A DNA stretch of 64,000 bases from positions 22,477,097 to 22,541,096 of the forward strand of contig NC_077242.1 of NCBI RefSeq assembly GCF_947179165.1. The letters run 5' to 3'. Below the pieces are notes generated by a model. That model searched no databases and had not been told where the DNA came from. It worked only from the letters and a program-made list of their open reading frames with translations. Both the position numbers and the translations under genes were made by a program. Source of the stretch: Solanum dulcamara (Eukaryota > Streptophyta > Magnoliopsida > Solanales > Solanaceae). Below, in pieces: positions 7,949 to 44,363 of the stretch. Every line of letters begins with the position of its first letter. Positions within the stretch are counted from its first letter, which is position 1.

Positions 7949-8622
7949 TGTAATGACCCTGAAAGTCATTTTTTATAATTTTTACAAAATAACTATTTTA
8001 TCCCTCCCGATAGTTTTTCTGAGTCATATTTGATCAATATCCAATGTTGATTTTGTAAAATTCCTTGAAAAGTTGAGATTTTTGATAAGTTTTGAGTTTT
8101 AGAGGCTTAAGTTCCTTAAAAATGGTATTTGAGGTCATCCAGAGTTTCAGATCTAGAAATGGAATTTCATCAACTCCGGAATGTTTAATATAGTCAAGGA
8201 GAGTTGACGGAATTAAATTCGAGATCATATCGTGGATTTGAGGCATTGAGTTGGAAATCTTAGATTTTTTGGTCATAGAGTTGACTTTAGTCAACATTCA
8301 GTGATTGGATGCTCGAAATTGAATTTTGATGGCTTTGTTAGATTCGTGAGATGATTTTAGGTCTAGGGAAAGCTCCTGTGCATTTTTCGAAAGCTTTGAG
8401 GGTGTTTTGGTCTTTTGAGGCATAAAGTTATTTTAGTTGTGACTCTTTGAATTTCAGGTCAAGGAAACCTCAAATTTGAATTTGATAGTTCCATTGAGTC
8501 CAAAATATTGAAATTAGTATGGTAGCATATAGCTTTGTGTGCACTGGATTCTAAACGATTTCCGAGGGTTGATTCCGAGACTTTGGGACTTGAGTTAGTT
8601 ATTGTCATCTGGTGCCTCATAA

Positions 8623-8818
8623 TCTTCGCATTCACGGACCCTCTTGACTGTGTTCGCAAAAGGTCAATTCTTTGACCTTCACGTTTGAGGAGGGCCGTCG
8701 CGTTCACGATGAGATAGAGGCATTGGTCTTCGCGTTCGCGGAGCTCCTTCCACGTTTGTGAAGTTTCTGTCAACTCAGTCATCTTGATGGTGTGCTAAGT
8801 GAGCCGTGATCGCGAAGG
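8623..8818 (+). repeat. Cluster of TTCGCGATCGCGAA-type palindromes
   Basis: At least seven related words occur within 200 bases, including CTTCGCATTCACGGA, GTCGCGTTCACGATGA, CTTCGCGTTCGCGGAG (8728-8743) and CCGTGATCGCGAAGG (8804-8818). The best copies are near-perfect palindromes centred on GCGWWCGC. Most deviations are CG to TG or CA. The homologous stretch of the second LTR copy (42298-42367, 43765-43889) carries the same cluster in better condition, for example ATCGCGTTCGCGAT at 43768. Confidence 0.85.
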
Positions 8819-9654
8819 GATAAAAATCCCTAAACAGTAGACATTTTCCAAAAGTCATTTTAACTATTTTGGAATTTTGGGAGCTCGGGAAGGCCATTTT
8901 GAACAAGAATTTTTGTGGAGAACTATTGATTAAGTGATTTTATACTATAATATTGATTACTATCGCATATATCTCATTTTGGACACTAAAGTCAATGTTT
9001 TAATTCCAAAATTTGAGAGCTTTGTTCAAGAACTTGAGATTTGGTAAAAATGGTGATTTCAAATTGGTTTTAACTCTGTCTTTGGATTTTTTTAACCATT
9101 AAATTCCTAATGTTTTGAAGAAAATTTTCATCCAAAATATTTCAGGTTTAGACCTCGTTTACAGAATTGGATTTTTGAGCCGTTTTGACCCTTTTTCTCA
9201 AACTTCATATTTTTTGGTGTCATTGGACTCAATTTATGATTTTGAATCATTCTTTGACTAGATTGTGGATATTCAAAGTATATTCAGAAGGGGAAGGCTC
9301 AAGTTGATTGATTGATCGTGATTTTTGGCTGAGGCAAGTGAACTTCTAAAACTCTGTGAATCTTGTAGAATCCTAAATTTCCTTTCTTATATGTGTTGGG
9401 GATTAATGGAGATGAGGTTATGAGTTAAAGTATTTATGAACTAATTTTAATTGATCGATGGGGTTAATAAAAGGTAATATGTGCTATTGTAGTAATTCAA
9501 GTGTGACATATCGTGATCTTGATATCTATGTATATTTGTTGAAATACTTTGATAGTCTCATTATGATTGCAGAATATTTGAACTTGTTATATTCCTCATT
9601 ACTTGTGTGAATATGTTGATTGTATTTGTTCTGGAACACTGTGATGAGATGGAC

Positions 9655-10000
9655 ATGATTGTAAGTTCGAGGTCATTTCTGATGAGATTATGATGCCGAA
9701 GTTATTTTTGAAAAAGATATTGTGATGCCATGGTCATTTTTGGTAAGATTATGATATCGAGGTTATTTTTAACGAGATTATGATGCCGATGTCATTTCAG
9801 CAAAGAGATTGTGATACGAGGTCATTTCCAATGAGATTATGATGCCAAGGTCATTTTTGATGAGATTATGATGCCGATTTTATTTCCAGTGAAATTATGA
9901 TGTCGAGGTTATTTCCAATGAGATTATGATGTTGAGGTCATTTTCGGCGAGATTGTGAGGCTGAGGTTATTTCCAGTGATATTATGATATCGAGGTCTTT
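9655..10000 (+). repeat. Imperfect tandem repeats, about 28-bp unit
   Basis: Variants of ATTATGATGCCGAGGTCATT followed by TTTGATGAG or TTCCAGTGAG recur about ten times head to tail inside the Tekay-like LTR. Units differ by point changes and by one-base gaps. This is the usual look of a subterminal LTR tandem array. Confidence 0.8.
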
Positions 10001-10690
10001 GTTGGAGAATACGCACTTGTATGATCATTGAGTGTGTGTATACATTCCTACATATCTTATGTGGAAGACTTGATACTTGCACTTGACTTGTAATTATCTT
10101 TGTATTATGATTTGTGACATTGAGTTGCGATCTTGAACAATATTTGAATTGTTTAGTCTGAACTATTAGATTGGGCTAATTTTTTGTGCAGGTTGTAGTT
10201 ATGGAGGTTCGGTTGGGGTTATAAAGGAGTTTGTGTATCCCATTAGATTTACTTAGTTTTGTTGGTTGGCTTGCTGGGTACCGTGTTATTTGGTACTCAC
10301 CCCTTGCTTCTACACTTGTATAGGTTCTAAGCCCGGACTTTGATTATTCATCTTTCTGATCATCTGAGTCTTCCAAGTCTTCCAGGATATTGAGAGAGAT
10401 AACTATTGACATCCAGTGGATTCTCTTATTCCTGTATTTTATGCTTTACTCTATCTGAGAGTCAAAGACATACTTGAGACTTGTATTTACATTCTAGTTT
10501 TGTTGTAGTGGCTTATAAATGTGAAACCAATCTTTAGAGATTATTTAAGTTTGAAAGACTTTAGATTTTATTTATTTATGTACCTATTTAAACTATTTCT
10601 GCGTTATTTTCCATAAATACTAGGTTTTAGGCTGACTTGTATAGTGGTAAAGAACATGTGCCATCACATCCGAATTCAGGTCATGATAAA

Positions 10691-10702
10691 TGGTATCAGA
10701 GC
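10691..10702 (+). promoter_or_regulatory. Primer-binding site (initiator Met tRNA)
   Basis: TGGTATCAGAGC is the standard plant retrotransposon primer site complementary to the 3' end of initiator Met tRNA. It lies two bases after the LTR end and fixes both the 5' LTR boundary and the plus-strand direction. Confidence 0.95.
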
Positions 10703-10886
10703 TCTAGATTCATAGGTCTCATGTGTACAAGCCAAGTCTAAGTAGAGTCTCAAGGATCTGTATGGAGATATTTTTACTTATCTTCGGAAGGCTACAAAGG
10801 TTGTTAGGAAAACTTCCTTGATTTATTCTTTCTTGTCGTGCCGAGTTGTTATCGCTAGTGCTGAGTGTAGCGTATTATTTTGGCAG

Positions 10887-11889: not shown

Positions 11890-12927
11890 TGTAATGACCT
11901 ACAAGGTCTTTTCATACTTTTGCATATTATTACCATTTTACCCCTTCCCGTAGATTTTTTATCACTCTTATGTGAGGTTGGGATAGGTGACACGCTTTCT
12001 AAGGTGTTCGATTGAGTTTTGAGGTGGTTTGGTCATTTTAGAGGCTTAAAGTTTAAAAGAATTGACTTTAGTCAACATTCGGAGATTCGAGTATCGTATC
12101 AGAATTCCAACGGATCCATCAACTCCGAAAGGCCCATTTTGGTCTAAAAGGAAGGTTGGTTTGGATTTTGGAGTCTTCATTTTGAGTTTAGGTGGTTTTA
12201 CCATTTTAACTTTAAATTTTGGCCAAGTTTGGCTTCGGTCAACAATTTGAGTTAACGCGCTCGAATGAAAATTTTGTTAACGCGGTTAGCTCCAGAACAA
12301 AATTTTTGGTTGCAACGACCTTTGATTTGGTTTCCAAGGTGATCAGAATGAATATGTTTGGCCGTTTGTGCATTTTAAGTGTTTTCTTTGAAAAATCTTT
12401 TGCTTGGTTCAACATTTCATCAAAATGACCTCCGTTGGAAAATCCATCAATTCCATTGCATCTGGAATGCCATTTCCAATTACGTAGCATATCTCGTTTG
12501 CGCACAGGATTCCGAACAAATTTGGAATACCCCATCGAAGAATTTGGCATGGCAAACTCAAATTGCACCAGCAATAGCTGCTGCCATCGCTAAAGTGACT
12601 CTTGTTCGCTAAAACAACTCTTGGTCGCTAAAGCGATCAGGTTGCAGGGCCGGGTGTCGCTAAAGCGTAAAGTTAACTGTTGCTTAAGCGGCCTGCTGTT
12701 GCTAAAGCGACCCCCTCCTCTCTGAGGTAGTCGCTTAAGCGAACACCGGGGGCTCGCTAAAGCGACATCAGAGACCTATTTTTGGTCTCTTTTTCAAATT
12801 TGAGATCAAACTTCCAACCTCGATTTTCTCTCTATATTTGGGCAATTTGGGTGATTCAAAGAGCTAAATTGCATAGATTTTTGAGGGGAATCCATTGATA
12901 CATTCATATTTAGGAGAAAAGGCTTCC
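11890..12927 (+). mobile_element. Second gypsy-type LTR, left part
   Basis: It starts TGTAATGACCTACAAGG, like a chromovirus LTR but from a different family than the host element. It is interrupted at 12927 by inverted Athila-like sequence. The matching right end is about 19753-20117, ending GTCGTAACA. Neither gag, pol nor a primer site for this family is present, so it is probably a solo LTR. Flanks ATTTC (11885-11889) and GTTTT (20118-20122) agree at only three of five bases, a weak target-duplication match. Confidence 0.6.
12587..12765 (+). repeat. Eight copies of the palindrome TCGCTWAAGCGA
   Basis: Copies start at 12587, 12606, 12625, 12657, 12680, 12699, 12731 and 12754. Two are exactly TCGCTAAAGCGA (12625, 12754) and one is the perfect palindrome TCGCTTAAGCGA (12731). 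The others differ by one to three bases, mostly CG to TG or CA. Spacing is irregular (19-32 bases) and the DNA between copies is unrelated, so this is not an ordinary tandem repeat. Confidence 0.92.
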
Positions 12928-14139
12928 TTGAGTTTATTTATATCTAAAATAATTATACTAAATATGATATAAGAAAATGATTTAAAGATATTAGCAAAAT
13001 TTTATCAATTTAAGGAAAAGTCCCTGGATTGTAGCACTTATAGATTTCCGTTCTAACATCCTTTACTTTGGTATCCAATGGGTATTTCGATTACTAATTT
13101 ACAGGGTTGATTTTATAATTATGATCTTCTGACCTCTAATTACCTACTTTTATTGACAGCTTAACTACATTTTTGAGCTGGAATAAACATGAACAAACAA
13201 AAATGCATTAATCATATCATCTTGTTAAGTAACCAAGCATGGTATATAGATATGTGTCACAGTCATTCCATACATGAATTATTCTTGGAAATTCTAAAAC
13301 AAACATGCTCCCTATATTCTAGTGTTATATTCCCTTTCCATCTTCCGAGTTCCAGTGGATAACAAAATTGTTCTAATGGTGATCTAGTATTAAAATAATC
13401 AAAACAAGAATATAGGAGTAGTCACATACAAAAATCCATTTTCGATCAAAGCAAATAAGATTTAAACTTTCATCTTGTGGCTCCAACCCAAGAACAAGGG
13501 GATTTAGCCACTCATAGTTTGTAACATAATTACATAAATTATTAATACCATAAAACTTGAATTCAATTGAAAGAATAGAAGAAAATATCACCCAAAAGTA
13601 GTTCTTCCTTCGTCTTCTTCAGTCCAAATCTGACAATTTGATCTATTTTTTAATAAAATATGTAAAGGTAATATTTATAGCACAAAAAATACAGAGTTAA
13701 AGTAAGCGCAATGAAGTCCATGACGCGGACTTGGTTCAATTTCGTGTAATTTTCCATTATTTGTATCGATGAAAATTTATTCTACCCAGAACCCGATCCG
13801 CGACGCAGACCTGGCGCGCACCATCCTGTTGAGTGAAATAAATTCCAAGTGTTGAAATTAAATCACTGAAGCATAGTGCGCGACACAGACATACTTCAAT
13901 ATGATGCATTTTCTTTGCATTTTGTTCCCAACTTCTCCTTTGAGCTCCACTTTCAATCCGATTATGTTTTGAATGTCCATTCTTTCTCAATTAACCCTGA
14001 AAGTGTCTAATCATGTTGGTTGGTTACAACAATACACAAATATGCAAAAATATGAGCTAAACTCTAGGAATTTGCTCTAAACTTGAATATGAATTGTGGG
14101 TTTTATTTTCTATTGGGCACATAAATGTACCCAAGATCA
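12928..14139 (-). mobile_element. Athila-like LTR fragment, inverted copy
   Basis: This 1.2-kb stretch is the reverse complement of 18399-19612. Matching landmarks are the LTR start TGATCTTGGGTACA (minus, ending at 14139) and the words GACTGTGACACATATC, GAGAAAGAATGGACATTC and TTTAGATATAAATAAACTCA. Three GTCCGCG-type palindromes lie at 13716, 13795 and 13876. Together with the + copy it makes inverted arms 4.3 kb apart. Open frames within it are mirrored in the other copy but are broken there, so I do not call a gene. Confidence 0.85.
13716..13890 (-). repeat. Three GTCCGCGWCGCGGAC-type palindromes in the inverted LTR
   Basis: The sites are GTCCATGACGCGGAC (13716-13730), GATCCGCGACGCAGAC (13795-13810) and GTGCGCGACACAGAC (13876-13890). 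Homologous sites in the + copy are at about 18660, 18727 (GTCCGCGTCACGGAC) and 18807. The same positions are palindromic in both copies with different point changes. Confidence 0.75.
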
Positions 14140-15733
14140 CTATCCAAAATACAAAATATATGTCAGAGCAAAGAGGGAATGTATCAAGTCTCTGAACGCT
14201 GGGAGCTCACCACAATCAGAATCAGGCTCAGCTACGGATGATCAGGCGCGTGCTGAGGGTGGCTCGAACTGGGAGCTGCATCTAAAAGATGCAGAAATAT
14301 AGTATGAGTACCAAAACATGGGGTACCTAGTAGGAATCATAGACCGACCGAGCTCATAAAAAATAAAATATATAATAAGCAGCACGATGATACTAATAAT
14401 AAAAAGAGAAGAGCACAAACTATAAATAAGGGGAAAGAGGGCATGTAAATAATCATACGGTAGTCAAGTAAGCGCGACCAATCATGTAAGCACATCAATA
14501 ATCCCAAACTGATAAAACACCGAAAAAATACATAATTTTAAATTCATAGCTAAGGATCAATATCCTCCAAAAGTATCATGAAGCATCCGAAATTTACGCC
14601 TCGAGCTTCCCAATAGTAGTAGTAATAATAGTAACCCAAATATGTATCATGGGCTACCCAGAATTCACACCTTGAGCTTCTCAATATTATTATTATTATT
14701 ATTATTATTAATAATAATAATAATAATAACCAAAAATATGTAGCAATAGGTCGCTCGAAAATCACGCTTTAAGCTTCTCATTAAGAAATGTCATAGTTAA
14801 AATATCACCGGTAACCTTCAAATCATTATACTTATTCATCAATCAAAAATCATCATATCACCATTTTATTCTTTAAAAAGGGTTTTTAACACCGGCGAGG
14901 CAATTCAAATAAAGTAGAATATCAAAACCACATATGACTCCAACTGAGTAAATCAATCCCATCTATAATTCCAAATCACTAACCTGAGACTCCGATATAC
15001 CAAAAACACGGCTATAGGCCTAACATTTCAATATTAAAAATAAGTAAGATATAGGCACACACAAAAATCACATCAAGCGGCAACCAAAACCAAGCAAGTC
15101 TAGTAACCAGCATCCTATGTTCAAATCACATAGGATCAAGCTCCAAGGATTCTAATCGATGCAAACAAGTCAAGATATCACCTAGGCTAAGAATACAACG
15201 ACTAAAATATCAAACTAGTTACTATCGATGATCATCAACTCATAATTGTTCACTGGATATCAACACTTAAATCATCGACCTAATCATGCATTACTACTCA
15301 AAATATACCAATTATAACCAAGTCAAACCTAACAAGAGTAAACCATAACCTACCTCAAAGATGAAACTGCATCCGAACTGCTAAATTTGAGTCTTTCCAT
15401 TTTGGGACACCTCTAAATGATGACACTCTATCAAATTATCGAAGAACACATCAAAATGAGGCCAACGATACCTAAAATGAAACTAAAATCGGGTCAAAAT
15501 TTGATATTAGGACCCACGCATGAAATCATAAAACAAACTCTATCATAAGGTCCCAAGTAGGTTAAGGAACTTATGCTCCAAAAATGAGCACATTCCAAGC
15601 ACCGAAAGAGCTCAAATAATTCCACCATATTTAAGCCCTAGAACACTCAAAAATATAAGAAAAAGGGACAATGTACCTTATACCACCTGCCCCACCTATG
15701 CTGCGAGGTAAATCTCATCGATTTGTCTGAAGA
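14140..15733. other. Degenerate LTR-like DNA, no gene
   Basis: This is AT-rich repetitive DNA without a coding signal. The stretch about 15300-15720 reads, on the minus strand, like the leader half of a chromovirus LTR. I could not define termini. A palindromic microsatellite lies at 14686-14729. Confidence 0.45.
14686..14729. repeat. (ATT)n(AAT)n self-complementary microsatellite
   Basis: About eight ATT units are followed directly by about seven AAT units. The 44-bp tract is therefore its own inverted repeat and can form a hairpin or cruciform. Confidence 0.95.
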
Positions 15734-16816
15734 GTGGTACATCCAACAAGAAAGAATTGGTATAAGCAACACACCGAATCTCGCTATCTATCAGATATGC
15801 CCATTAATGAAGAAAGATTGGCTAGAGACTACCCAAAAATCAGGAGAAGAATAGAGGAGCTTAATGTGAATTTCTTGTTCGCTGACCTGAAGCCGTGCAA
15901 TTTGCATATAGTGCAGGAATTTTTATGTAAATTATCAATTGGATCAGCACACTCATTATATTACAGTGTGAGGGATTGATGTTCCTCTATCTCCAATGAC
16001 CATCAATGAGATATTGGGAACTCCTGAGTTGCCTACCACCGTGCTGTCTGAGTTGAATATTCAACCACTATATAGGGATATTCGTCATACTTAATGTGGG
16101 CTCAGGTCAACAGCAAAGTGGGTATGTCACGGGCTATGGGGCTACCATAACACATTTCCATATGCTCATCTTAACAAAGAAGCACGCGTGTGGGTGAAAA
16201 TTATCATACAAAGCCTTATTCCAGGCCTCCACTACACCAAAATAACGCGGGACAGAGTGTGTTTGGTCTATGCCCTTATAAAAGAGATAGATGACAATGT
16301 TGGTGTTGTTGTCAAATCAACCATCCATAAGTGTAGAGTCCATCAAGGTAGAGAGTACGCATTCAGAGGCCTCATTATGGAGATATGCCAAAGGGCCGGG
16401 GTCCTCGAGGACTAATATGATTATATGGCCCCCTTACCTCGGAGTCTTATGATGTCACCAACATTAAGGGGGTAGACTACACTTACGGCCCAGTCCTCAC
16501 TACTCAAGAGTGTGCAAGGCGTGATGATATAATAATAACCCGTATGTTTGTCCTGGAGATGCTTCAATACTGCACCAGATGGCGTGCCTCAAATGAAGAA
16601 GAACTCTGTGAGTTAGAAAGACAATATCCATTGAATGAGCATGCTATGGCTGTCCTAGTACTTGGGCCTGATTTTTATGAGCCTACTAAAGATGACATTC
16701 CTACGAATGAGGATAGGAGGAAGACATGCTTAGACGTGGATTCAGATTTAGAGGCCACAGAGTTTGACCCTTTGGTGGTTGAAGATCCGGCTGTTGGAGG
16801 ACTGACTGATAAGTAG
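15734..16816 (+). pseudogene. Athila env-position ORF remnant (putative plant transposon protein domain)
   Basis: Readable pieces are WYKQHTESRYLSDMPINEER with EERLARDYPKIRRRIEEL (15734-15979), then 16188-16415 in a different frame, then 16544-16816 back in the first frame. The words NWYxQHxESR and EERLARDxP are what I associate with the plant transposon protein domain often encoded downstream of pol in Athila-like elements. At least two frameshifts and several stops break it, and the region just before 15734 belongs to something else, so it is truncated at the 5' side. Its biochemical role is unknown. The C-terminal part is acidic (DSDLEATEFDPLVVED). The copy at 30480-32520 occupies the same place in a more complete element. 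Confidence 0.6.
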
Positions 16817-18398
16817 ACAGGAAAGTCTACTACATTATGCTCCTGAGGACAGTGCCCAACTTTAAGTGTGGGGTGGAATGTCTATTTAATTTAAACTTTA
16901 TTTGTTTATCTTTGTTAGTATTGATGTTTTAGTTTATCTGTTTATTTTTATTAGTTTGATATTTTGGTTTATCTTTGTCGGTATTGATGTTTTGGTTTAT
17001 ATTGAATGTTTGATGTCGTTTAATTTTTTTATTAACTGACTTTGGATTTCATGGCATTTATTTTTGAATCTTTGTCCATGGATAGTCCCTTTTGAATCGT
17101 ATATAAGAAAAGAGTTTTTGTTAGATATTTGTAATATATATAAAGTGTTTTGCTAAACTATCAAATTGCATAGGTAGCAGATAAAATGGTTGAAAAATAT
17201 TGAATCAAAAACTGGCTAAATTGAGACATCTAAGACTCATTTGTTAGATTTTGAATAATGTTGAATTTATGTGATTGTGGTTGAAATTTCTTAAGAATTG
17301 TCCTAAAATTAAACATGTGCAGTATGAGTAAGGTTAATTGTATAATCCTTATTGATCTTGATTGCTAGAACTTGCCCCGTGTGTATGAGTAGTGAAAATA
17401 AAGGAAGTTTAGAATTTAGGGAAAGGATCTAGGCAATTCTTTGGTAACCTCAGTTTCAAACCACTTGTGGTTACCCACCTTAATGTAAATCTATAGTTAG
17501 CCCTTTTGAGCCTTTGACTTAATTCTTTGACAGCCTAGTTTGAAGCCTATTCCCATTTTTTTCTGAGATCATAATTTTGATCCAAAAAGTCAAGCGCTTT
17601 GGAAGAGAATAAGCGGAGAAATAGGGGGGGGGGGGAGTTTACAACCATGTGTTACTAGGAGTAAAATCATTGGTGAAAATAATTGAAATAAAATCTTGTG
17701 TTAGGGAAGACAAGCATATGGAAAGTGAAAAGAAAGCCAACCACATTATGGTTGAAGAGAGTAAAGATAAAAAGGAATCCCTTACACAGATAAATGAATT
17801 GAGAGGGTAAGCTAAAGAAAGAACAAAGTAGTGAGAATAAGGTTATGAATTACTTGCATGGAATTACTGAATGTAGTGTATTGAAAGCGCTTAGGAACAG
17901 AGTAACTATACATGTCCACATTACTACCAACCCATCCCCTAGCCCACATTATAACCTGAAAAAGTACTAGGTGATCCTTAAGTCTTAGCTGCCTTAATAA
18001 AACTACATAATACACTCATCTTGAGCAACTTGTGACTTCATATGAGAGAGTGAGCGAATTTTGTTTAAATACCCATTGTTGTTGACAAGGAGTGTAACTG
18101 TGAGAGTATGGGTAATTCATCTTGGTAAGAGCACATGTTTAATGAAGAAATGGTAATTTTGCATGAATTTTAATTTAACAAGCCATATGAGTTTGTTTCA
18201 TTACAAAGTCAACTCTTGAGTTTATTTGGTGTTAACTTAGTCAGTCGCGTGAACAAAATTTGACACGTGTGTGTAATGTAAGCTACTTGTGCAATCACTG
18301 TGGTTTGGTATAATTTCTTTATATATCATGTGTTTGGTACTTTAGGAATAAGACTGGGAGTTTGTTCGATGATGAACAAAGCAATAAGTGTGGGGTGG
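16817..18398 (+). mobile_element. Athila-like 3' non-coding region with polypurine tract
   Basis: The stretch has no supported gene. It begins with a CTTTAAGTGTGGGGTGGAAT-like phrase and ends with AAGTGTGGGGTGG (18386-18398) directly against an LTR start, the position of a polypurine tract. A G13 run lies near 17624-17636. This links the ORF remnant at 15734 to the LTR at 18399 as one truncated element. Confidence 0.65.
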
Positions 18399-19752
18399 TG
18401 ATCTTGGGTACATTATGTGCCTAATAATAAATAAAACTCATAATTCATACTCAAGTTTAGAGCAAATTCCTAGAGTTTAGTTAATATTTTTACATATTTC
18501 TGTATTGTTGCAACCAACCAACATGATTAGACACTTTCAGGGCAAATTGAGAAAGAATGGACATTCAAAATATGATCGGATTGAAAGTGGAGCTCAAAGA
18601 AGAAATTGAGAATAAAATGCAAAGAAAGTGCACCATATTGATGTGTGTTCGCATCGTACACTGAGCTTCAGTGATTTAATTCCAACACTTAAAATTTATT
18701 TGACTCAACAGAATGGTGTACGTCAGGTCCGCGTCACGGACCTGGTTCTAGGTAGAGAAAATTTTCACTAACACAGATAATGGAAAATTGCACGAAACTG
18801 AACCAAGTCCACATCACAGACTTCAGTGCGCTTACTTTAACTCCACATTTTTGGTGCTATAAATATCACCTTTACATATTTTATTAAAAAGTAGATCAGA
18901 TTCTCAAATTTGGACTGAAGGAGACAAAGGAAGAACTACTTTTGGGGTGATATTTTCTTCTTTTTTTTAATTGAATCTAAGTTTTTATGGTATTAATGAT
19001 TTATGTAATTATGTTACAAACTATGAGTGGCTAAATCCTCTTGTTTTTGGGTTGTAGCCATAAGATGAAGGTTTAAATCTTAATTGCTTTGGTTGAAAAT
19101 GGGTTTTTGTATGTGATTACTTCTATATTCTTGTGTTGGTTGTTTTAATGCTTGATCACCATTAGAATAATTTTGTTGTCCACTCAAAACTCGGAAGATG
19201 GAAAGGGGATAGAACACTAGAATATTGGAAGCATGTTTGCTCTAGAATTCCCAAGAATAATTTGTGTATGGAATGACTGTGACACATATCTATACACTAT
19301 GTTTGGTTACTAAATAGGATGCTATGAATAATGCATTTTTGTTGGTTCTTGCTTATCCCCGCTCAACAATGTAGTTAGGATTTCAATAAAATTAAGCAAT
19401 TAGAGGTCGAAAGATCATAATTGTAAAATCAACCCTATAAATCTGTAATTGAAAGACCCATTAGATATCAAAGTAAAGGATGTTAGACCAGAAATCTATA
19501 AGTGCTACAATTCAGGGACTCTTCCTTAAATTGATAAAATTTCTCTAATATCTTTGAATCCTTTTCTTATATATTTTTTAGTATAATTATTTTAGATATA
19601 AATAAACTCAACTCTTTGCAAACACACACGAATAATTTGATTCATTGAAAAGCTAACTAATGCCTATTTAAACTTTTCAGTGGATTCGATATCCAGCTCT
19701 TAAAAAGGGTCACTATATTACTTTTGAGTTGCGTGTACATTTGGACGTAACA
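18399..19752 (+). mobile_element. Athila-like 3' LTR, plus-strand copy
   Basis: It starts TGATCTTGGGTACATT immediately after the polypurine tract and probably ends GGACGTAACA at 19752. Near its end is TGGATTCGATATCC, which resembles the TGGATTCGACNCC phrase usual near the 3' ends of Athila/Tat LTRs. Its first 1.2 kb is the inverted partner of 12928-14139. Confidence 0.75.
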
Positions 19753-19771
19753 GACAGTTAGTTTTTTGTTG

Positions 19772-19810
<39 letters not shown>

Positions 19811-22788: not shown

Positions 22789-22790
22789 AA

Positions 22791-22812
22791 TTTTAGCGCC
22801 GCTGCTAGGGAA
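22791..22812 (+). promoter_or_regulatory. Primer-binding site of the Athila-like element
   Basis: TTTTAGCGCCGCTGCTAGGG follows the 5' LTR after two bases. It is a decayed version of the TTGGCGCCGTTGCCGGGG-type primer site that marks Athila/Tat elements. Confidence 0.85.
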
Positions 22813-32520: not shown

Positions 32521-34089
32521 ACCTCAGCGCTTAGGCACCACAAGTTCTTTTCCCTTTCCCCATTATGGTTTTTACTATTTATTGTACTGCATTGAGGAAA
32601 ATGCAAGGCTTTTCAAGTAGGGGTGTGGTGGTTATAAATGAATGCATGAGTATTTAGGCGAAGTCTGAGTACCCTAAACACTCGACTAAATCCTTGGGGT
32701 TTTCTTACCTGTGTTCTTTTTCCCCATAGGCCTTTTTAATTTATGTTGAATCGGCATGTTTAGGACGTAAAATAAGTGTAGGGATCTATGGCATGGAGGC
32801 TAGATTTTAAACAAAAACAAATAGACCCTCTCCAAAATTTTCTTGAATTACTGTGACTGTTTCTTTGATAGATTGACTATGTAAGATCTTTGTATGGCAT
32901 GATGTAAATCAGTATGAGAACACATGACTTATACTAAAACATGAACCAAAGATTGATGATTGACAATGAAACTTGTTGCCAAGTGTGTGTGAGGCATTTA
33001 TATATTCGGACTATTTGTGCAAATCTAGAACTTTCCCCATTGGTCATACTATGATGATTGAACTGTTGACTAGGAAAGGATCATAGGCCATTTATGACTT
33101 GTTCCACTTAGCCTTAAAAGAACCAACCAAAGATTGTTCTACCCTTTGAACCAAAGATATAAGCTTTTAAAAATCCTTTTTGATCAAATAAACACGTGTT
33201 TCAATGCCTAATCCAAATTGTAATCCCTTCTTTTATCCCCCATTCCCTCTTAAGATAATATGCACATCAACTCAAGATAAAAGCCTAAGTTGAGGGTGGT
33301 TACTATGAAAGGAAATCGACAAGACAAGGGGTGTGAGAAAAGAAAAATTAAAAAGAGAAAAGGTTTGAAAAAGTGACGTATGAAAAGGAAGAAAAAAGTG
33401 GTTGGCTAAATCGAATAAATGGTTTAGAAAGAGTTAGCAAAGAGAGGCACAAAGTATAAGAAAAACGTACAAATAAAAGCCACAGCTAAGGCAAAAGCAA
33501 CAAGCGAAGACAAAGAGTGAAACGAAGTATGGGTTTAAAAAAGTGGACTCAAAATTGATGTGGCATTTGAGGAGGGCCAAAAGTCACTAAAATCTAAATT
33601 CACCACACCTGCCCCCAAGCCTACGTTACAAGCCGCAAAAGTCCTAGTGATCCTAATTCAACGGTTCAAGAGTCTAAGTATTAAAAATAAGGGCAAGCCT
33701 ATGGTATTGTGCATAAAAGACTGAATTTTGTTTGTGAGCATGGGTGTTTTCCCACGTCCCCGAAATTTAAAGAATAAATGTAATTCATGAGTGAAAAAGG
33801 GACTTCTTTTCAGTGAGGGCATAAGTGGCATTGTCTAAATAGTCATGAAAATGGTGAATGTTGTTTTTGGCATGTTAATTGTTTATTGGTGTAGAAACGT
33901 CTAGCATTGATCTACATAAGTTAGTCTTATTTGAAATAATGGTTGCAATAGTATCATGAATGGAAATTGGAAAGGGTTGGGAGTTAATAGCCTATGATTG
34001 CTGTACATTCTTAAATCTTGTTTCGCATAGAGTCGTTGTAGTATAGTAGTGTCGCTTGAGGATAAGCAACTATTTTAAGTTGAGGGTGT
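32521..34089 (+). mobile_element. Athila-like 3' non-coding region and polypurine tract
   Basis: There is no gene in this stretch. It contains AAGTAGGGGTGTGGTGG near 32614, similar to the phrase that follows the related ORF at 16817. It ends TTAAGTTGAGGGTGT next to the 3' LTR, which is the polypurine-tract position. Confidence 0.75.
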
Positions 34090-35596
34090 TGATGTACCGT
34101 GTATTTATGATACTTTTAATTCTTTAAAACTTAAGAATGTGCATGTATTTTAAGCATGTGTTAGTATGTTTGATGTTGGTTGTACATATTTTGTAGGAAA
34201 CTAAGTCAGAGAATTGATTGAGGAATCATAGCACTGAAGGAAGGTAATTTTTGAGGTCTATGAGGTCAGACTACAACCTATAATTAGATATACGGGTCGT
34301 AGGTGTTAGTCATCAGAGCAGCAGTAAAGGAATGAAGGAACAGTGAAGGAAACGAGTAGGTTATACGGCTCATTTACATTTTAATGAGGCATAAAATGCA
34401 GTCGTAGCTATAAGTTGCAAGTGGTGAAAGAAGGACAGTGTCTACAACCCCAATTGATGAGTCCTAGTCAAGATAACGAGCCATAGACAATGGCTGTGTA
34501 AAAGGAGAATTCCTCAGTGCGATGTGAAAGAGTACGAGTTAGGTCGACGGCTTATTTGAAAGCTTACGACCCGTATAAACAAGCCATAGACCCAATTTGA
34601 ATTTTAGTCTCCTGTGGTTTTTAAATCCAGAGTTATTTAGGAAAGTTAGTGTATAAATACACTTCTTAGGTTCAAATTTTTGTATGTATGTTTTTGGTTT
34701 TGAGAATATAACTTAAACTACTTTTGAGCTTTTATTCTTAAATTTGAGTTTTTGTTAGTAATATTTTATGTTTGAATTTTATTGAAGATTTTTGGGTTCT
34801 CATACTTCTCATTGTAAGTTTATAATTTCTTTTAACTTGAATACTATTAAGTGTGAACACATAGTTATGAGTAGCTAATTCCACGACTAGGGTTGTGGGA
34901 ACCATGAAGAATTAATTACATAGAACCTAATAAAAAGTAATTCTTAAATAGTGTGCAAGCATGTATTGTTTTTTCCTTTGGTCTGATTATTTTTTAATAA
35001 TGGTCAACGTTAGAACTCGCCTTATCCTTACTTGTCGGATCAAGGAGGTAATAGATGGGAAAATGGATTAAACAATGAGATTTGGGGCTAATCATCCTCA
35101 TCTAATTAGCTTGAATGGATCAAGGGATAGCTAAATTTGGGATCATTGGTAAGGGTTAGCAAAGCAAACACTCATAGACGGATCAAGTTGTGTAGTGAAA
35201 TTCACCTATTTATTGGATCAAGGACTTAGATAAAACTAACTTACCGATTCTACATGTAACACAGTAGGAAAGAATTGCTAATAAAAAAGGGTCTACTTAG
35301 TTAAGAATTCATGGAGAACACATAAAACTCTAGTTTCACTTCTTATTGATTTAAATCATATTAAGCCATACTTTCGTTTGTGGACGTTTGCTATTTGATT
35401 TATTAATTAGTTTATTAAAATTCCCCCCTTGTTTTCTCTTTTGATAGGAATAACTTGATTACTAAGCAAATAATAAACGATTGATCTAAAGTCTAAATCA
35501 TATTCCTCGTGGGATCGACCCTAACCTTCGTTAGGTTCTATATTTGATTAATGATATCTTTATGCTTCTTTAGGGAGGTATAATTTGAGTGTATCA
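34090..35596 (+). mobile_element. Athila-like element, 3' LTR
   Basis: This 1,507-bp copy of 21311-22788 starts TGATGTACCGTG and ends GTGTATCA. It is followed by the target duplication ACTAT. It differs from the 5' LTR by many point changes, mostly transitions, plus the 29-bp segment at 34873-34901. The insertion is therefore not recent. Confidence 0.93.
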
Positions 35597-35601
35597 ACTA
35601 T
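35597..35601 (+). repeat. Target-site duplication ACTAT (3' copy)
   Basis: It is the partner of ACTGT at 21306-21310, with one transition difference. Confidence 0.85.
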
Positions 35602-37921: not shown

Positions 37922-38000
37922 TATCCCAAGCTTTTCGAGGGTCCAAGTACTTTCTTTTATGTTATGTTCGAGGACGAACATAATTTTTAGTGGTGGATGA

Positions 38001-38192
38001 TGTAATGACCCTGAAGGTTATTTTTGTTATTTTTTGCAAAATGACCATTTTACCCCTCTAATAGTTTCTCGAAGTCATATTTGATCAATATTCAATGTTG
38101 GTTTCGTGAAATTTCTTGAAAAGTTGAGATGTTTTTGTAAATTTTGAGTTTTAAAGACTTAAGTTGTTTAAAAATGGTATTTAAGGTCATCT
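38001..38192 (+). mobile_element. Tekay-like 3' LTR, piece 1
   Basis: It starts TGTAATGACCCTGAAGG and follows 7949 onward closely for about 190 bases (GACCATTTTACCCCTC, CATATTTGATCAATATTCA, CTTGAAAAGTTGAGAT). It breaks off at GGTCATCTGG, where foreign DNA begins. Confidence 0.9.
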
Positions 38193-41100
38193 GGCGAGGA
38201 ATAGACAATCAACTTTCATCACAAAACTAGGGTTCATCATCTACAAGCGTCGAGTTTAGAGATTCTACTAAGGTTTTTGTCTTTCAGGTATGTGGGATTT
38301 CATCAATGGGTAACCTTTCATCCATTGAGTCTCAAAGTGAACTCTATTATTCAGTTATTAACTTCTACAGAGTTTAGGGTTCTTATAAAAAGTGTGGACT
38401 TTAGTTCCTCCTCATGGATAGTCTATAGATACATATTTTCCATATAATTCAATAGCTTTACCTAGGTATATTTCATGAAGCCTCATAATATGAAAAATTC
38501 ATGCCTTTGAACTTGTGTTGTTTAAATTTCATATTATATTCAGAATATAGAAATTGCCATGATTATTTATACTCTTTGGAGTTGGTGGGTTATGAACATC
38601 CAATCCCTTAGTATTGCATAGATTTACAGTTTTACATTCAGTCTTTTGTAACACATGTTTTCCGATAAAGTTTCTATCATTCAATCTCAATTTTCAGTAT
38701 TATTGCGCTACTCAATTTATCAGCATAATTAAGTTGGGAGTATTACTAAGAACTGAGTAGACACAAGGATAAAGTCTCACCCATCAGTTATGCTGAGACT
38801 TTTAGTAGCAATCCATAAGTCTTAGACCTACATGTAAGGTACTAAAGGTTCACCGTCAGATCAGGCTTGAAACCTTAGTCCTTTTGGACATAAGTTTAAT
38901 AGATCTATGTCAATCAGTGTTTATACCCTTAGCAAGGTATATAGCGCCCTCTAGCTAGGGTACATGTTGGACTTTGTCTAGCTCAAATGGAGTATTTGGT
39001 TATAAATATCTCCCACAGTTCAAACTCTAATATTGAATGATCTCGTATTTAGTTTATTTAGTACAATATTGATCAGTTACATGTTTGTTACTTGGTTCTT
39101 GTATCAGCTCCTTATTCAGTTTAGCATCTTAGGTTCATCATGTTCAACTTTATAGATTATAATGCATCTTTCACATGCTTAATATATTCAAAGTACTAAC
39201 CATATACTTTTTTTTGCACTATATTATTTATAATATAGGTTCGGATGCTCAACATTCAACTCTTGGTATGATTCTATATCATCTCAGCACTAGAGTTTGG
39301 TGAGTCCTCATCCTTCAAAGACATGACCTTTTTATATTTTCTTTATTTTAGTCAATAAAGTTTCAAAAAATTAGAATTATCTGGGGGAATAACTCATCTT
39401 AGTAGAGGTTTTCAAAAAGATAGACAATAGTTTCTAGCTTTATGATTTGTTTAGATGATTTCTGTTTTGACTATTAAGTTTTGTTTTGAATTTACTTATA
39501 TCAATCATATTTAGCTTCCTCTCAGAGATTTTCAGCTTTATACAATTAAATCTTAGTGTCATGCTAGGCTATGGGTTAGTTTGGAGGTTATTTGTGACTT
39601 TAAGTACCGTGTTACGACTAGGGAGTAGTCTCATATTGTGATAAATTTGATATCAGAGCATTAAATTTAAAAGTCATGTTGAGTAGAGTCTTGTTCATGG
39701 GTATGAAGCGTGCCATATTTATGAATGAAAGGCTATGAAATATTTTAAGAATGTTTTACTCCTTTCATATTCATATCATGCGATAGAGTGAGAACTCTAT
39801 TTAGCCTCTTTCTAACCATGCTTTATGTGCTTAGAAAACCATGCCTCCCAGAAGAGCTTATAGAAGAAGAAATGGAAATGAAAATGAAAACTAGCAAGAA
39901 CAACCAGCTCAAATAGACCCTCTGAACGAATAAGTCTCTCATGCTGAGTTCATGGCTTCTTTCTAAGTGCTAGCTCAGCTAATGACAACTTAGGTCAATC
40001 AACAAGATGTTGCCCGGGTCAACTCAAATGGGAATACGGTAGCGACAAGAGTCCAGTATTTCACTTGGATGAATCTTCCTGAGTTTCATGGTTCTATGGT
40101 GGAGGAGGATCCACAAGAGTTCATTGATGACATTTAGAAAGTCACCAAATTATGGGTGTCACTCTAGTCGAGAGTGCAAAACTAGCTTCTTACCAATTGA
40201 AAAAAGTGGCTCAGACTTGGTATAAGTAGTGGAAGGAATATAGGGGAGTAAATATGGGTCCAATATTGTAGGATGAGTTTGGCACTACATTTCTAGATAG
40301 ATTCTTTCCACTTAAGTTAAGGAAAGCCAAAATTCAGGAATTTAAAAATCTGAAACAAGGTAAGAAGACCATGAATGAGTATTCTCTTAAGTTTAGTCAG
40401 ATTTATAAGTATTCTCCGATGATGGTGGGTGATTCAAGGGCCTGAATGAGTAAGTTTGTCTCAAGGTATTTCTAGGAACGTGGTTAAAGAATATAGAACT
40501 TCCATGTTTATTATGGAGATGGACATCTCTAGGTTGATGACCCATGCTCAATATATCAAGGAAGAAAAGGTCTATTTGAATAAAAGGGAGACTAGTCAGA
40601 AAAAAATTAGGAGGTGGCAATCATTCTCAGTTCCAGCCCCATCATCCCCTAGTTCCCAGTACCCAAGTTCAAGCCAAATCTTAGGGATAGAACACCGGGC
40701 TCTAAGTCCCATGACAACATCACAAGTGGTTGTGCCCATCCAATTTGCAAGAAGTATCATAAGAACCACCTAGAGAAGTGTATGGTCGGCAGTAATGGTT
40801 GTTTTAGATGTGGAAAGTCAGGTCACAGATGAAGGATTGCCTAGGGGCCTCTGAGAGGAGCAGAGATGTATGTCAACAAACTCAGTCCAACTCTTCACAG
40901 CTCTAGCAGGTCACCCGACTCAATAGGGTGGCACATCTAGTGTTAGTGGTGGATATAACCAAAATAGGTTCTATGCCTTACAAACTTGGCAGGACCAGAA
41001 AGATTCTCCTGATGTAGTCATTGGTATGTTGCATGTATTTTAGATTAATGTATATGCATTATTGAATCCAAGAGTCTCACTTTACTTTATGACCCTTTAT

Positions 41101-41626
41101 ATTGTAGTAAATTTTAATGTCAGCCGAAAATTTTATCAAAACCCTTCTGAATCTCTACTCATATTAGTGAGTCAATCGAAGCTAAACGAGTATATAGAAA
41201 TTGTGTAGTCTCAGTTTTTTTGAAATTCACCACAATTGATTTAGTAGAGTTAGACATGTTTGACTTCTATATCATTCTTGGCATAGACTGATTGTACTCT
41301 TGTTATGCCTTAGTAGCTTGCACTGTTAAGTTACAGTTAGCTAATAAACTAGTCATAGAATGAAAGGGTAGTACTTTAGTACCCATATGCCATTTGTATC
41401 TTACCTTAAGGCTAGAAAAATTATATCTAAGGATTGCATTTTTCATCTAGTCTGTGTTAAGGATTCTAGGTCAGAAGCCCCATCCCCTGCATCTGTTTTA
41501 GTGGTGAATGTATTTCCAAAAGTGTTTCTAGAAGATCTTTCCTAAGTCCCTCCCGAATGGGAAATTGACTTTAGAATAGACCTTCTTACAGAAACCTATT
41601 CGATCTCTATTCCTCTATATTGAATG
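38193..41626 (+). mobile_element. Degenerate gypsy fragment with LTR remnant, primer site and gag-protease
   Basis: The fragment interrupts the Tekay-like 3' LTR. From 38193 to about 39645 it looks like an LTR without its start. TTGATATCAGAGCATT (39648-39663) is a decayed Met-tRNA primer site. A gag begins at 39841 with MPPRRAYRRRNGNENEN, then continues MNLPEFHGSMVEEDPQEFID, DRFFPLKLRKAKIQEFKNLK and SLKFSQIYKYSPMMVGDSRA. A zinc knuckle follows as CFRCGKSGHR. Protease-like remnants (DLVELDMFDFYIILGID) run to about 41620. Stops and frameshifts are frequent. It is a chromovirus-type element cut off before RT. Confidence 0.75.
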
Positions 41627-41819
41627 TGTCACGACCCAAGCTAGGCCCTAGGTATGACACGATGATCAAAATTCAGAAGAAATCCAATCAAGCCTCTTAG
41701 CATATCATTCATGAGCATATATAAGGTAATTAAAGCAATAAGACTTAAGCGTAGGAGTGAAAATAAAGTCTCAACAAGAATAGTCTCAATAAAAGAAAAT
41801 AAATCTCAAAATCGAAAGA
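41627..41819 (-). mobile_element. Chromovirus LTR end fragment, minus strand
   Basis: TGTCACGACCCAAGCTAGGC is the reverse complement of a typical chromovirus LTR 3' end (GGGTCGTGACA). The fragment abuts the gag remnant and then returns to Tekay-like LTR sequence near 41820, so at least two events disrupted this LTR. Confidence 0.6.
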
Positions 41820-42367
41820 AAATAGAAATTCGTCAATTCCATTAGCTTCATAATGTTAAATTTGGTCTAAGAGAGTTGACGAAATCAAATTTGGGGTTAT
41901 ATCGTGGATTTGAGGCGTGGAGTTGGAAATCTTTGAGTTTTTGGCCATAGAGTTGACTTTGGTCAACATTCAGTGATCGAATGCTCAAAACCGAATTCTG
42001 AAGACACGTTGAATTTAAGGGATGATTTTATACCTAGGGAGAGTTCTTGTGTATTTTTTGGAAACTCCGAGAGCATTTTGATCTTTTGAGGCATAAAGTT
42101 AGTTTTGTTGTAAAGTTTTAAATTTTGGGTCAAGGAGACCTCGAACTCAAATTTTGGTGGTTCCATTGAGACATGAACGTCAAAATTAGTATGGTAGCAT
42201 ATAAGGTTTATGTGCAGGGAATTTCGAACGAATTTCGAGGGCTAATTTCAAGACTTTGAGACTTGAGTTAGTTGTTGTCATCTTGTGTCTCAATACTGTT
42301 CGTGTTCACGGAGCCTCTTGACCGTGTTCTCGAAGGGTCAGTTCTTTGACCTTCGCGTTCGCGGAGG
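41820..42367 (+). mobile_element. Tekay-like 3' LTR, piece 2
   Basis: It matches 8170-8695 of the 5' LTR (GAGAGTTGACG, TATCGTGGATTTGAGGC, GAGTTGACTTTGGTCAACAT, ATTAGTATGGTAGCATATA). It includes the left half of the CpG palindrome cluster and is cut at GCGGAGG by the solo LTR. Confidence 0.88.
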
Positions 42368-43759
42368 TGATGCGCCCAAACTTACACTTTAATTAAGAAA
42401 TATAAAGCGATCGTTGTCAAATATACAACCCAACTAGGTTGGGGTCGAATCCACAAAAAATGTGGAGGATATAAGTCTACTAGTACTTAAACTCAGATGT
42501 AATCAATATTTCCAAATAATATACATGCATAAAGTAAATTGGGGGATTTATTGTTTCAATAAGTAAAAGTTCACAGTAACAGCATAAAAAAAACTTAAGG
42601 TTGTTAACAATATGAGATGGTAACTAGGACTGCGTTCTCCATGGCATGTAACTCAGTAGTTGTTAGGTATTGGTGATATAGTATCAATGCATTGCATTCA
42701 AAATCTAGCAATTTATGTACATTTAAATACCTCCCGATTCTATTAAATATATTTCACTCATCTTCCCGTAGTCTCGGAGTGTATTGCCAACTAACCCTTG
42801 CTTTTGATCTTAGAAAACTATCTCCTCCCGGGCTCAAGTTCTTGGACGAAGGTTATGCTTTGAATCTCTGTTATAGTTTTATTTTCCTAATCACTGTCCC
42901 TCTTCCAAGCAAGTAATGAATACAGGCGAGTTTTAACGCGGACCCTCGTTAAAGCGAAAACAAGAGTAAGAAAACTACAATGTAATGCTAAACATTTACT
43001 AACAATTACCTATACGTTTGCCTACTTCATTATTGTGCCATGGTTCCCACAACCCTAGTTGTGAATTTAGCTACACATAATTTTAATATCACAATTTAAA
43101 AATTATAGATAAAATCTTAATTATGAACTTGCAAATTGAATAGAATAAATTCAAAATCTTAAATTCTTGAAGAAAATACAATAAAAATAAAGAAGAAAAG
43201 AATAATCGATTTTGTCCGATCTTCATGACGAATATTTTAAAATTTCCAATCTATAAAAATATAAATTCTAGATTAAAAGTTATTTCTTGTAGTAAGTCAG
43301 TTCTCTAGAAGAATTATTTTTATGAACTATTTATAGATGTAACAACAACCCTAAATAAAATAACTAAAACAAAACTAATTGAAAATCCAAAACCCAGAAG
43401 AATTGTACTTTACACGCTGTAGCCGACTTCAATTTGATTGTTGTCTTGGACATCTGACACGTGGCAGCAATAGTTAGGTTTTCTTTTAATTTGATTTCGT
43501 TGATTTCAATTCGTGTTACTTACGGGAATATAAGAAATATTACTATTAAATTAGAATCCTTCTATTAAGTTGTCTATTTGATTTTCTTTTTTAATTATTT
43601 ATTATTAATTTATTTTAGCTTCAATTTTTTTTATTTTTGCGTTAGATTAATACTACAAATAAAATATACTATTTAGCACAATTCACAAAATTTATGTTTA
43701 AAAAAAATTAAATATAAAGTAATTAATAATTAAAAATATTTATTTTTGACATTACATCA
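42368..43759 (-). mobile_element. Solo LTR of an Athila/Tat-like element, antisense
   Basis: This 1,392-bp insertion begins TGATGCGCCC and ends ACATTACATCA on the + strand. Its flanks GGAGG (42363-42367) and GAAGG (43760-43764) form a 5-bp target duplication with one change, and the uninterrupted site is seen in the 5' LTR near 8690. Read on the minus strand it ends GGGCGCATCA, and it shares CTAGGGTTGTGGGAACCATG with the Athila-like 3' LTR at 34886. It has no internal region, so recombination between LTRs probably removed the element. Confidence 0.88.
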
Positions 43760-44363
43760 GAAGGGCTATCGCGTTCGCGATGAGATAGAGGCCAATGGAC
43801 TTTGCGTTTGCAGAGCTCTTTCCGCGTTCGCAAAGTGTCTGTCAGCTCAGTTATCGCGATCGTGGGCTAAGTGAGCCGCGATCGCGAAGAGATAAAAATT
43901 CCTGAACAATAGACATTTCCCAAAGAGGGAAATAAGTCATTTTCACTATTTTGGGGATTTTGGAAGCTCGGAAAGGAGATTTTGAACAATGTTTTTTGTG
44001 GAAAAACTATTGGGTAAATGATTTTATACTATAATCTTGATTACCCATCGCATATATCTCATTTTTGATACCAAAATCAGTGGTTTTAACTCCATATTTA
44101 GATTGATTTTCGCCAGTAGATTCCTAATGTTTTGAAGAACATTTCCATCCAAAAAATTTCGGAGTTAGACCCCATTTTTGAAATTGAATTTTTGAGCCGT
44201 TTTTATCCTTTTTTCTCGAATTTCATGTTTTTGGTGTCGTTGGACTTGATTTATGATTGTGAATTATTATTTGACTAGATTGTGGCTATTTGGAGTATAT
44301 TCAGAAGGTGAAGACTCACGTTGATTGATTAATCGTAATTTTTGGCTAAGGCAAGTGATTCTT
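43760..44363 (+). mobile_element. Tekay-like 3' LTR, piece 3
   Basis: It matches about 8690-9345 of the 5' LTR, including the best-preserved CpG palindromes (ATCGCGTTCGCGAT at 43768, CCGCGATCGCGAAG at 43876). Homology stops at GGCAAGTGA, so the last 1.3 kb of this LTR is missing together with any 3' target duplication. Confidence 0.88.

What the first reader, a model, noticed from the sequence alone, without database searches (positions are those of the whole stretch)
7949..44363. Four unrelated LTR families each carry their own cluster of short CpG palindromes
Seen directly: the Tekay-like LTR has TTCGCGATCGCGAA-type words. The second chromovirus LTR has TCGCTWAAGCGA eight times in 180 bp. 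The Athila-like element has CTACGACYCRTAG-type words in both LTRs and its 3' spacer. The other Athila-like LTR has GTCCGCGWCGCGGAC-type words. The words differ completely, but all are 12-15 bp, near-palindromic, CpG-bearing, irregularly spaced and set in unrelated DNA. The shared architecture suggests convergent or modular selection, for example a repeated dimeric protein site, a CpG methylation switch, a packaging or dimerisation signal in the RNA, or hairpin-linked silencing avoidance. I do not recall a description of this as a general LTR feature, but I cannot search.
Basis: partly seen in the sequence, partly recalled or inferred. Interest (0 to 1): 0.78.

Follow-up and report, generated by a model that had tools for sequence, protein, structure and literature searches.

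The report
Palindrome arrays in plant retrotransposon promoters
Some plant retrotransposon families carry, near their promoter, a small array of short self-complementary CpG words that look like paired protein-binding sites; this layout was known from one other retrotransposon group and is here seen in a different superfamily, with the words swapped between relatives.

Summary
The words are real, but the finding needs three corrections. (1) Two of the four "unrelated" families, the Tekay-like LTR and the second chromovirus LTR, are divergent members of one LTR lineage, and their words share one frame, TCGC-N4-GCGA. All 15 Tekay copies fetched have it, 53 sites within one 400-base stretch of the 1-kb pieces (shuffled mean 1.8). 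(2) From this window alone only these two arrays beat shuffles clearly. The Athila-like words (TACG-N3-CGTA) and family-4 words (GTCCGCG-N-CGCGGAC) need genome copies to stand out. (3) The general idea is in print: Sireviruses (Ty1/copia) carry family-specific CpG palindromes just before the LTR TATA box and again before ENV (PMC2829016). Added here: the layout in Ty3/gypsy elements. Family-4 words end 35-36 bp before the TATA box in 13 of 18 rows; Athila words recur upstream of a second ORF. Both word classes of the Tekay frame occur in two separated LTR groups, so words were swapped, or moved by recombination, at a fixed place. Best reading: promoter-proximal arrays of dimeric DNA-binding sites; the binder is unknown. 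RNA hairpins or small-RNA templates are the main rival.

The parts
7949..9341 (+). 5' LTR of the Tekay-like chromovirus (end as far as it matches the 3' LTR)
   Evidence: Matches 38000-38191, 41835-42367, 43759-44102 and 44081-44358
8625..8816 (+). Words of the Tekay 5' LTR, TTCGCG..CGCGAA type, 4 sites
   Evidence: 9/200 shuffles as high
38000..44358 (+). 3' LTR of the Tekay-like element, interrupted by about 38192-41834 and 42368-43758
   Evidence: RT 35654-36172, RNase H, SH3_Tf2-1 and a chromodomain piece 37715-37918 below the Pfam cut-off
42299..42365 (+). Words of the Tekay 3' LTR, first part (2 sites)
43768..43888 (+). Words of the Tekay 3' LTR, second part (3 sites)
   Evidence: 0/200 shuffles as high
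12100..12927 (+). Second chromovirus LTR fragment, same LTR lineage as Tekay; boundaries not determined
   Evidence: Match to L004 (70%, E 1e-8); tree group of 6 rows, 100/100
12587..12765 (+). Word array TCGCTWAAGCGA, 8 sites, spacings 19, 19, 32, 23, 19, 32, 23
   Evidence: 0/200 shuffles as high
21308..22789 (+). 5' LTR of the Athila-like element, which lies inside the Tekay pol (inferred from the flanks)
   Evidence: Pairs with 34087-35597 at 86%
21512..21796 (+). TACG-N3-CGTA words (2 at <=1 mismatch); TATAAATA at 21873
34087..35597 (+). 3' LTR of the Athila-like element; words 34291-34575, TATAAATA at 34652
28868..30350 (+). Athila spacer between pol and second ORF, 20 words at <=2 mismatches, many in doublets 19 bp apart
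   Evidence: like arrays in L102 and L103
31300..31518 (+). Piece of the second ORF, PF20167 Transposase_32
   Evidence: E 4.7e-14
12928..14140 (-). Family-4 (Athila-like) LTR; words at 13716, 13796, 13876; TATAAATA on the minus strand at 13672-13679
18398..19611 (+). Family-4 LTR; words at 18727 and 18807; TATAAATA at 18858
   Evidence: 88% identical to the copy at 13 kb
16095..16412 (+). ORF piece between the two family-4 LTRs, PF20167 Transposase_32
   Evidence: E 1.1e-18

Best explanation
The words are arrays of binding sites for dimeric DNA-binding proteins, most likely host transcription factors, on the promoter side of the LTR; in the Athila-like element a second array lies upstream of its second ORF. 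Each site is two inverted half-sites at fixed spacing: TCGC-N4-GCGA (Tekay), TACG-N3-CGTA (Athila-like), GTCCGCG-N-CGCGGAC (family 4). Shown: the sites, their spacing, their confinement to one stretch in Tekay copies, their place before the TATA box in family 4 and the window Athila LTRs, and the presence of two word classes at one place in one lineage. Inferred: that protein binds them, that they drive transcription, and that relatives change word when the factor changes.
For: 15 of 15 Tekay copies, chosen with a query that holds no such site, have TCGC-N4-GCGA at <=1 mismatch: 53 sites, all at bases 500-900 of 1,021-1,031 fetched; shuffles of that stretch mean 1.8, max 6; gap 3 gives 2, gap 5 gives 3, gap 6 gives 6, GCGA-N4-TCGC 4, AGCG-N4-CGCT 0. 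Genome-wide TCGCTWWAGCGA 3099 against 25 for its reverse, also a palindrome with equal CpG. Family 4: last word ends 35-36 bp before TATAAATA in 13 of 18 rows. Athila: TACG-N3-CGTA 58 sites in 21 LTR rows, 43 in 7 spacer or other arrays, shuffled mean about 1.5 each. In 147 collapsed Tekay sites the innermost two bases are A/T in at least 140 and pair less than expected (40 against 70.4), while the next pair keeps symmetry (94 against 56.6); a single RNA hairpin could not use that pair (2-base loop). Another LTR family has CACGTG palindromes (a known bZIP/bHLH dimer site, recalled) with TATATAAG or TATATTAG starting 24 bp after the start of the last one in L010 and L027.
Against: No binding, expression or methylation data; no known factor matched to the three words. 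No clear TATA box after the Tekay arrays, only GATAAAAAT-like stretches by eye. The symmetric core pair may just reflect two inherited word classes (T..A and G..C); the collapse of related sites does not remove that. Flank symmetry slightly beyond the half-sites (flank 1: 60 against 41.0; flank 2: 57 against 44.4) is also predicted by structural rivals. Copies are related, so pooled shuffle tests overstate: a control region of the same 15 Tekay copies also beat its shuffles (6 sites against max 4; array 23 against max 4). The Athila control GCAT-N3-ATGC gave 22 sites in the 21 LTR rows (3 exact against 13). In the other G-box stretches looked at (4 of 6) the TATA pattern was not found.
Confidence: 0.6

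Rival explanations
1. RNA structure: the words make hairpins or word-to-word duplexes in LTR transcripts, used by the element or cut by the host into small RNAs, as proposed for maize Sireviruses.
For: 11 array regions fold better than their shuffles (sense z -1.0 to -5.9, 8 of 11 at or below -2; 200 background stretches mean -0.14, sd 1.31, 19 at or below -2). Maize Sirevirus palindromes are small-RNA hotspots (passages of PMC10760457 and PMC5311732). Word-to-word pairing would keep the core pair.
Against: The symmetric core pair cannot form within one RNA word. Athila words (51 collapsed sites) show no symmetric variation in core or flanks. [quoted passage not shown]
Confidence: 0.15
2. Mutational origin without function: template switching at fold-backs during reverse transcription makes palindromes, and tandem duplication or slippage multiplies them.
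For: Symmetry with varying letters at core 1 and flanks 1-2 in Tekay. Spacings repeat (19, 32, 23; 19, 84, 13, 70). In two of 10 arrays (L011, L026) the DNA between words is most alike at lags 102 or 204, multiples of the word period (0.38-0.40 against 0.26-0.27), a trace of old tandem units.
Against: Fixed half-sites and exact gap across diverged copies, in one stretch only; same place against the TATA box in family 4 (though those copies are 88-93% identical). The other 8 arrays show no clear tandem trace between words (short, so weak test).
Confidence: 0.1
3. Element-specific anti-silencing targets, like the VANC motifs of Arabidopsis VANDAL transposons: an element-coded protein binds its own arrays to undo silencing, and motif and protein co-evolve.
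For: Family-specific words in non-coding arrays, two word classes at one place, second array in the Athila spacer.
Against: No extra DNA-binding gene in the pieces scanned; the second ORF shows only PF20167, of unknown function. Of the VANC paper only the search listing was seen (PMC5735166).
Confidence: 0.07
4. CpG-methylation switch or CpG island made of words, whatever their sequence.
For: CpG observed/expected 0.83-1.56 in 11 array regions against a window mean of 0.55; array above 5' U3 in 14 of 15 Tekay copies. Sirevirus words border CpG islands (PMC2829016).
Against: CpG content alone does not ask for dyad symmetry or exact spacing; the reversed word with the same CpGs is rare or absent.
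Confidence: 0.06
5. Chance or base composition.
For: Window-only tests do not separate family 4 and the Athila spacer from shuffles.
Against: 3099 against 25 genome-wide; 53 against 1.8 in 15 copies.
Confidence: 0.01

Closest known systems
Sirevirus repeated motifs (RM), Ty1/copia (Bousios et al. 2010, PMC2829016)
   Different: Those are Ty1/copia, with a CGG-CCG core in 12 of 13 words and at least 8 copies per element, and the paper calls them Sirevirus-specific among the copia elements it studied. Here the elements are Ty3/gypsy, the frames are TCGC..GCGA, TACG..CGTA and GTCCGCG..CGCGGAC, and some LTRs have only 2-4 words
Arrays of cis-regulatory repeats in LTR U3 (Tnt1 boxes, retroviral enhancer repeats; recalled, and noted in passages of PMC10760457)
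   Same: Repeated short, sometimes palindromic, sites upstream of the LTR promoter that evolve fast
   Different: Here the word differs between relatives at the same place while the half-site frame stays
VANC target motifs of VANDAL transposons (PMC5735166, search listing only; details recalled)
   Same: Family-specific short motifs clustered in non-coding DNA
   Different: Class II elements with their own VANC gene; no such gene found in the pieces scanned here
Exchange of LTR parts between families, e.g. Quinta and a Copia LTR in einkorn (PMC11302176, passages)
   Same: A promoter-side LTR module acquired, possibly by gene conversion
   Different: That module is a 162-bp nucleosome-linked motif, not palindromic words

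Membership tests
Sirevirus with RM boxes | Ty1/copia pol (integrase before RT) | tested here: not met
   Athila-like element: RNase H 26851-27117 before integrase 27586-27966; Tekay: RT, RNase H, then SH3 and chromodomain pieces
Sirevirus with RM boxes | CGG-CCG core in the word | tested here: not met
   Frames are TCGC-N4-GCGA, TACG-N3-CGTA, GTCCGCG-N-CGCGGAC
Sirevirus with RM boxes | Palindromic words clustered shortly before the LTR TATA box | tested here: met
   Family 4: 35-36 bp in 13 of 18 rows. Window Athila LTRs: TATAAATA 76 bp after the last TACG-N3-CGTA. Not shown for Tekay
Sirevirus with RM boxes | Further copies upstream of the gene after pol | tested here: met
   Athila-like: array 28868-30350 before the PF20167 piece at 31300. 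Family 4: none at <=4 mismatches in 14141-16095
Tekay chromovirus | Ty3/gypsy pol with chromodomain | tested here: inconclusive
Chromo E 9.3e-5, 22.7 bits against cut-off 25.1; SH3_Tf2-1 5.7e-19.
Athila lineage | Ty3/gypsy pol followed by spacer and second ORF | tested here: met
   Gag, RNase H, rve, spacer, PF20167. Lineage itself not tested by a tree, so 'Athila-like' only
VANC-type anti-silencing target | Element codes a protein that binds the motif and removes methylation | not testable with these tools
   No candidate gene in the pieces scanned

The most novel reading that the evidence does not exclude
Palindromic CpG words before the LTR promoter are a convergent feature of plant LTR retrotransposons in both superfamilies. 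Within one lineage the whole array switches from one word to another while its place and outer half-sites stay, because the element follows the changing specificity of a dimeric factor (host or element-coded) that decides between silencing and transcription.
Probability: 0.2. Interest if true: 0.82.

Novelty: new variant of a known kind. Interest (0 to 1): 0.5.

Why it matters
Published work ties such palindromes to one Ty1/copia genus. Finding the layout in Ty3/gypsy elements, with two word classes at one place in related LTRs, makes the unknown binder testable: nearly the same LTR with different words is a natural pair for binding screens. The arrays are abundant (3099 exact copies of one word in one genome) and might also supply promoter parts to nearby genes.

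Tried and rejected
De novo scan without asking for CpG: palindromic motifs not in excess over mirror or direct controls (windows at score >=5, palindromic 100, mirror 110, direct 139, complement 57 of 1725); with CpG-bearing best motifs 19 against 2, 7 and 5. A first scan likewise showed only the second chromovirus array and an AT-rich stretch at the top.

Degenerate tandem repeat as the sole origin: a trace between words in L011 and L026, none clear in the other 8 of 10 arrays, so not adopted as the whole story.

Symmetric flanks as proof of structure: 66 uncollapsed sites suggested it out to flank 3; after collapsing related sites (147 of 211) it is strong only at core 1, weaker at flanks 1-2, not significant at flank 3 (45 against 37.8), absent in Athila.

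The set 'Ath LTR first 100 bp' was a badly oriented control and is not used. In one search L016 was not clear (6 of 100 shuffles as high), and the G-box stretches fall outside that test because their CpG spans the centre. The element that carries the words of L011 and L026 was not resolved.

Genome-wide counts for CTACGANTCGTAG, TCGCNNNNGCGA and GTCCGCGWCGCGGAC did not complete.
Full report
What is in the window. The region is a nest of LTR elements. A Tekay-like element runs from 7949 to about 44360; its 3' LTR is interrupted twice, and pol pieces match RT, RNase H, SH3_Tf2-1 and, below the curated cut-off, a chromodomain. An Athila-like element with LTRs 21308-22789 and 34087-35597 (86% identical) has gag, RNase H and integrase pieces in Ty3/gypsy order and a second ORF with PF20167 at 31300-31518. 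Family 4 has two inverted LTR copies (12928-14140 minus, 18398-19611 plus, 88%) with a PF20167 piece between them at 16095-16412.

The words. A search over all CpG 5-mer halves with gaps 0-5 and 200 shuffles per region gives clear excess in the window only for the second chromovirus array and the Tekay 3' piece; Athila LTRs and the Tekay 5' LTR are weaker; the spacer and family 4 are not separable from chance. The frame TCGC-N4-GCGA at <=1 mismatch occurs 16 times in the 64 kb: 6 in the second chromovirus array, 2 and 4 in the Tekay LTRs, 4 elsewhere.

One lineage, two words. I fetched 15 copies from near the top of the 54 match rows listed for the Tekay part downstream of the words (the rows include the window itself and second pieces of one copy; a few rows were skipped without looking at content). 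The query holds no TCGC-N4-GCGA. All 15 have it (<=1 mismatch), 53 sites, 1-7 per copy, none outside bases 500-900 of the 1,021-1,031 fetched. The pieces do not reach U5. Some copies carry TCGCTTAAGCGA-like words, some TCGCGATCGCGA-like, three a mix. The LTR in random piece L025 is homologous to the Tekay 5' U3 (65% over 633 columns, E 8e-27) and holds TCGCTAAAGCGA words. In a tree of the DNA 5' of the array (26 rows) the second chromovirus LTR groups with five LTRs that carry TTCGCGTTCGCG words (100/100), apart from the group with the window Tekay LTR; both sides hold both classes, so the tree forces at least two changes of class, or exchange by recombination. Cautions: classes were labelled by eye, L035 weakly; the five LTRs, like L001, L003 and L006, were fetched through the TTCGCG word, so the only TCGCTWAAGCGA row in that group is the window's own; 18 of 23 inner branches are open, and the labels are not clustered better than shuffles (89 and 129 of 500 as low).

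Genome counts. CCTTCGCGTTCGCG at <=1 mismatch: 858 against 78 for the reversed pattern. TCGCTWWAGCGA exact: 3099 places against 25. The reverse of the second word is itself a palindrome with equal CpG, so CpG content and palindromy alone do not explain the excess.

Athila-like words. 18 of the 40 listed matches (two of the 40 are the window) were fetched, plus the two window LTRs and L028: TACG-N3-CGTA 58 sites (13 exact) in 21 rows, 20 of 21 rows with at least one; the other gaps 0-8 give 0-5; shuffled mean 1.5, max 6 (60 shuffles). The control GCAT-N3-ATGC gives 22 (3 exact). Seven spacer or other arrays (window, L102, L103, L028, and L026, L011, L014, the last three taken because the scan had flagged them) give 43 sites (shuffled mean 1.45, max 4; gap 7 gives 13), with doublets 19 bp apart in all seven at <=2 mismatches, and steps of 13 and 70-84 bp recurring. 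The window spacer array lies between pol and the PF20167 ORF.

Family 4. 16 of the 40 listed matches (two of the 40 are the window), taken in order, plus the two window copies: words in steps of 78-81 or 159-160 bp in 13 of 18 rows; the last word ends 35-36 bp before TATAAATA in 13 of 18 rows; in the other five the third word or the TATA box is missing or changed, and one row has no word at all. These copies are 88-93% identical to the query, so fixed steps may simply be common descent.

Random sample. In 20 random 10-kb pieces (L009-L028) plus the window, windows whose best motif bears CpG number 19 palindromic against 7 direct, 5 complement and 2 mirror, of 1725. Of the 19, 14 are listed: 5 in the window and 9 in random pieces (8 clusters). 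These include L025 (Tekay lineage), L026 and L014 (Athila-type words), L016 8851-8980 (GGCGCG.CGCGCC, with TATATATA about 65 bp away on the minus strand side), a degenerate repeat in L016 at 6971 that looks unlike a promoter, and an LTR family with CACGTG palindromes (L010, L027, L012) that matches 7 of the 20 random pieces. One young pair of that family (97.6% over 900 bp, L012) keeps two CACGTG sites in each copy.

Mechanism. In 147 collapsed Tekay sites the two innermost bases are A/T in at least 140 and pair less often than expected; the next pair changes between T-A and G-C together (94 of 147, expected 56.6); flanks 1 and 2 vary symmetrically more weakly; further out nothing significant. 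This set includes sites fetched through the words (L001-L008, L044-L083). Exact half-site spacing points to a dimer on DNA. A single RNA hairpin cannot use the covarying core pair, but pairing between words could, and the two core classes may be inherited, so RNA is not excluded. Folding z is at or below -2 in 8 of 11 array regions.

Against what is known. Bousios et al. 2010 (PMC2829016; abstract, passages and section 9 read) describe palindromic CpG boxes in Sirevirus LTRs, shortly before the TATA box and again before ENV, and call them Sirevirus-specific among the copia elements studied. Their 2016 paper on maize was not held and is known to me from passages in PMC10760457 and PMC5311732 and recall. 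PMC10760457 finds no obvious hairpin peak in maize Ty3 elements. My searches listed no title or abstract start that describes such words in Tekay or Athila; of the listed papers I read passages of PMC3601003, PMC3212565, PMC11963269, PMC6911290, PMC11302176, PMC10794571 and PMC9780303 and found none there; the rest were seen as listings only. The library leaves out most subscription journals. The elements fail the Sirevirus membership test (pol type, core) but share its layout.

Limits. Related copies inflate pooled shuffle tests (one search shows this for a control region). No binding, methylation or expression data were at hand.

Noticed in passing
L010:6830-7010, L027:5980-6090, L012:458-490 and 7868-7900: LTR family matching 7 of 20 random pieces, repeat pair over 2.5 kb in L012, with CACGTG palindromes; in L010 and L027 a TATA box starts 24 bp after the start of the last one.
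   Followed up: partly
L016:8840-8990: GGCGC-type long palindromes in three places, upstream on the minus strand of TATATATA near 8770; a further word type, 6 of 100 shuffles as high.
   Followed up: partly
L011:6060-6400 and L026:470-820: Athila-type words with shared steps of 19, 84, 13 and 70 bp, in DNA that does not match the window Athila LTR or spacer.
   Followed up: partly
L022:5240-5482: Five family-4-type words (<=4 mismatches) in a random piece.
   Followed up: no
window 6405-6908 and 45153-45608: Repeat pair (83%) on both sides of the Tekay-like element, with 34-bp and 43-bp tandem units.
   Followed up: no
window 2327-3091: Inverted repeat, arms 81-90% complementary.
   Followed up: no
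window 9668-9997: 29-bp/87-bp tandem array about 330 bp after the Tekay 5' LTR.
   Followed up: no
window 14-1909 and 4865-5338: Gene pieces: sodium/calcium exchanger and a MADS-box (SRF-TF) domain.
   Followed up: no
window 62227-63983: Two minus-strand stretches 67% and 72% identical to the Tekay pol region, probably another chromovirus.
   Followed up: no
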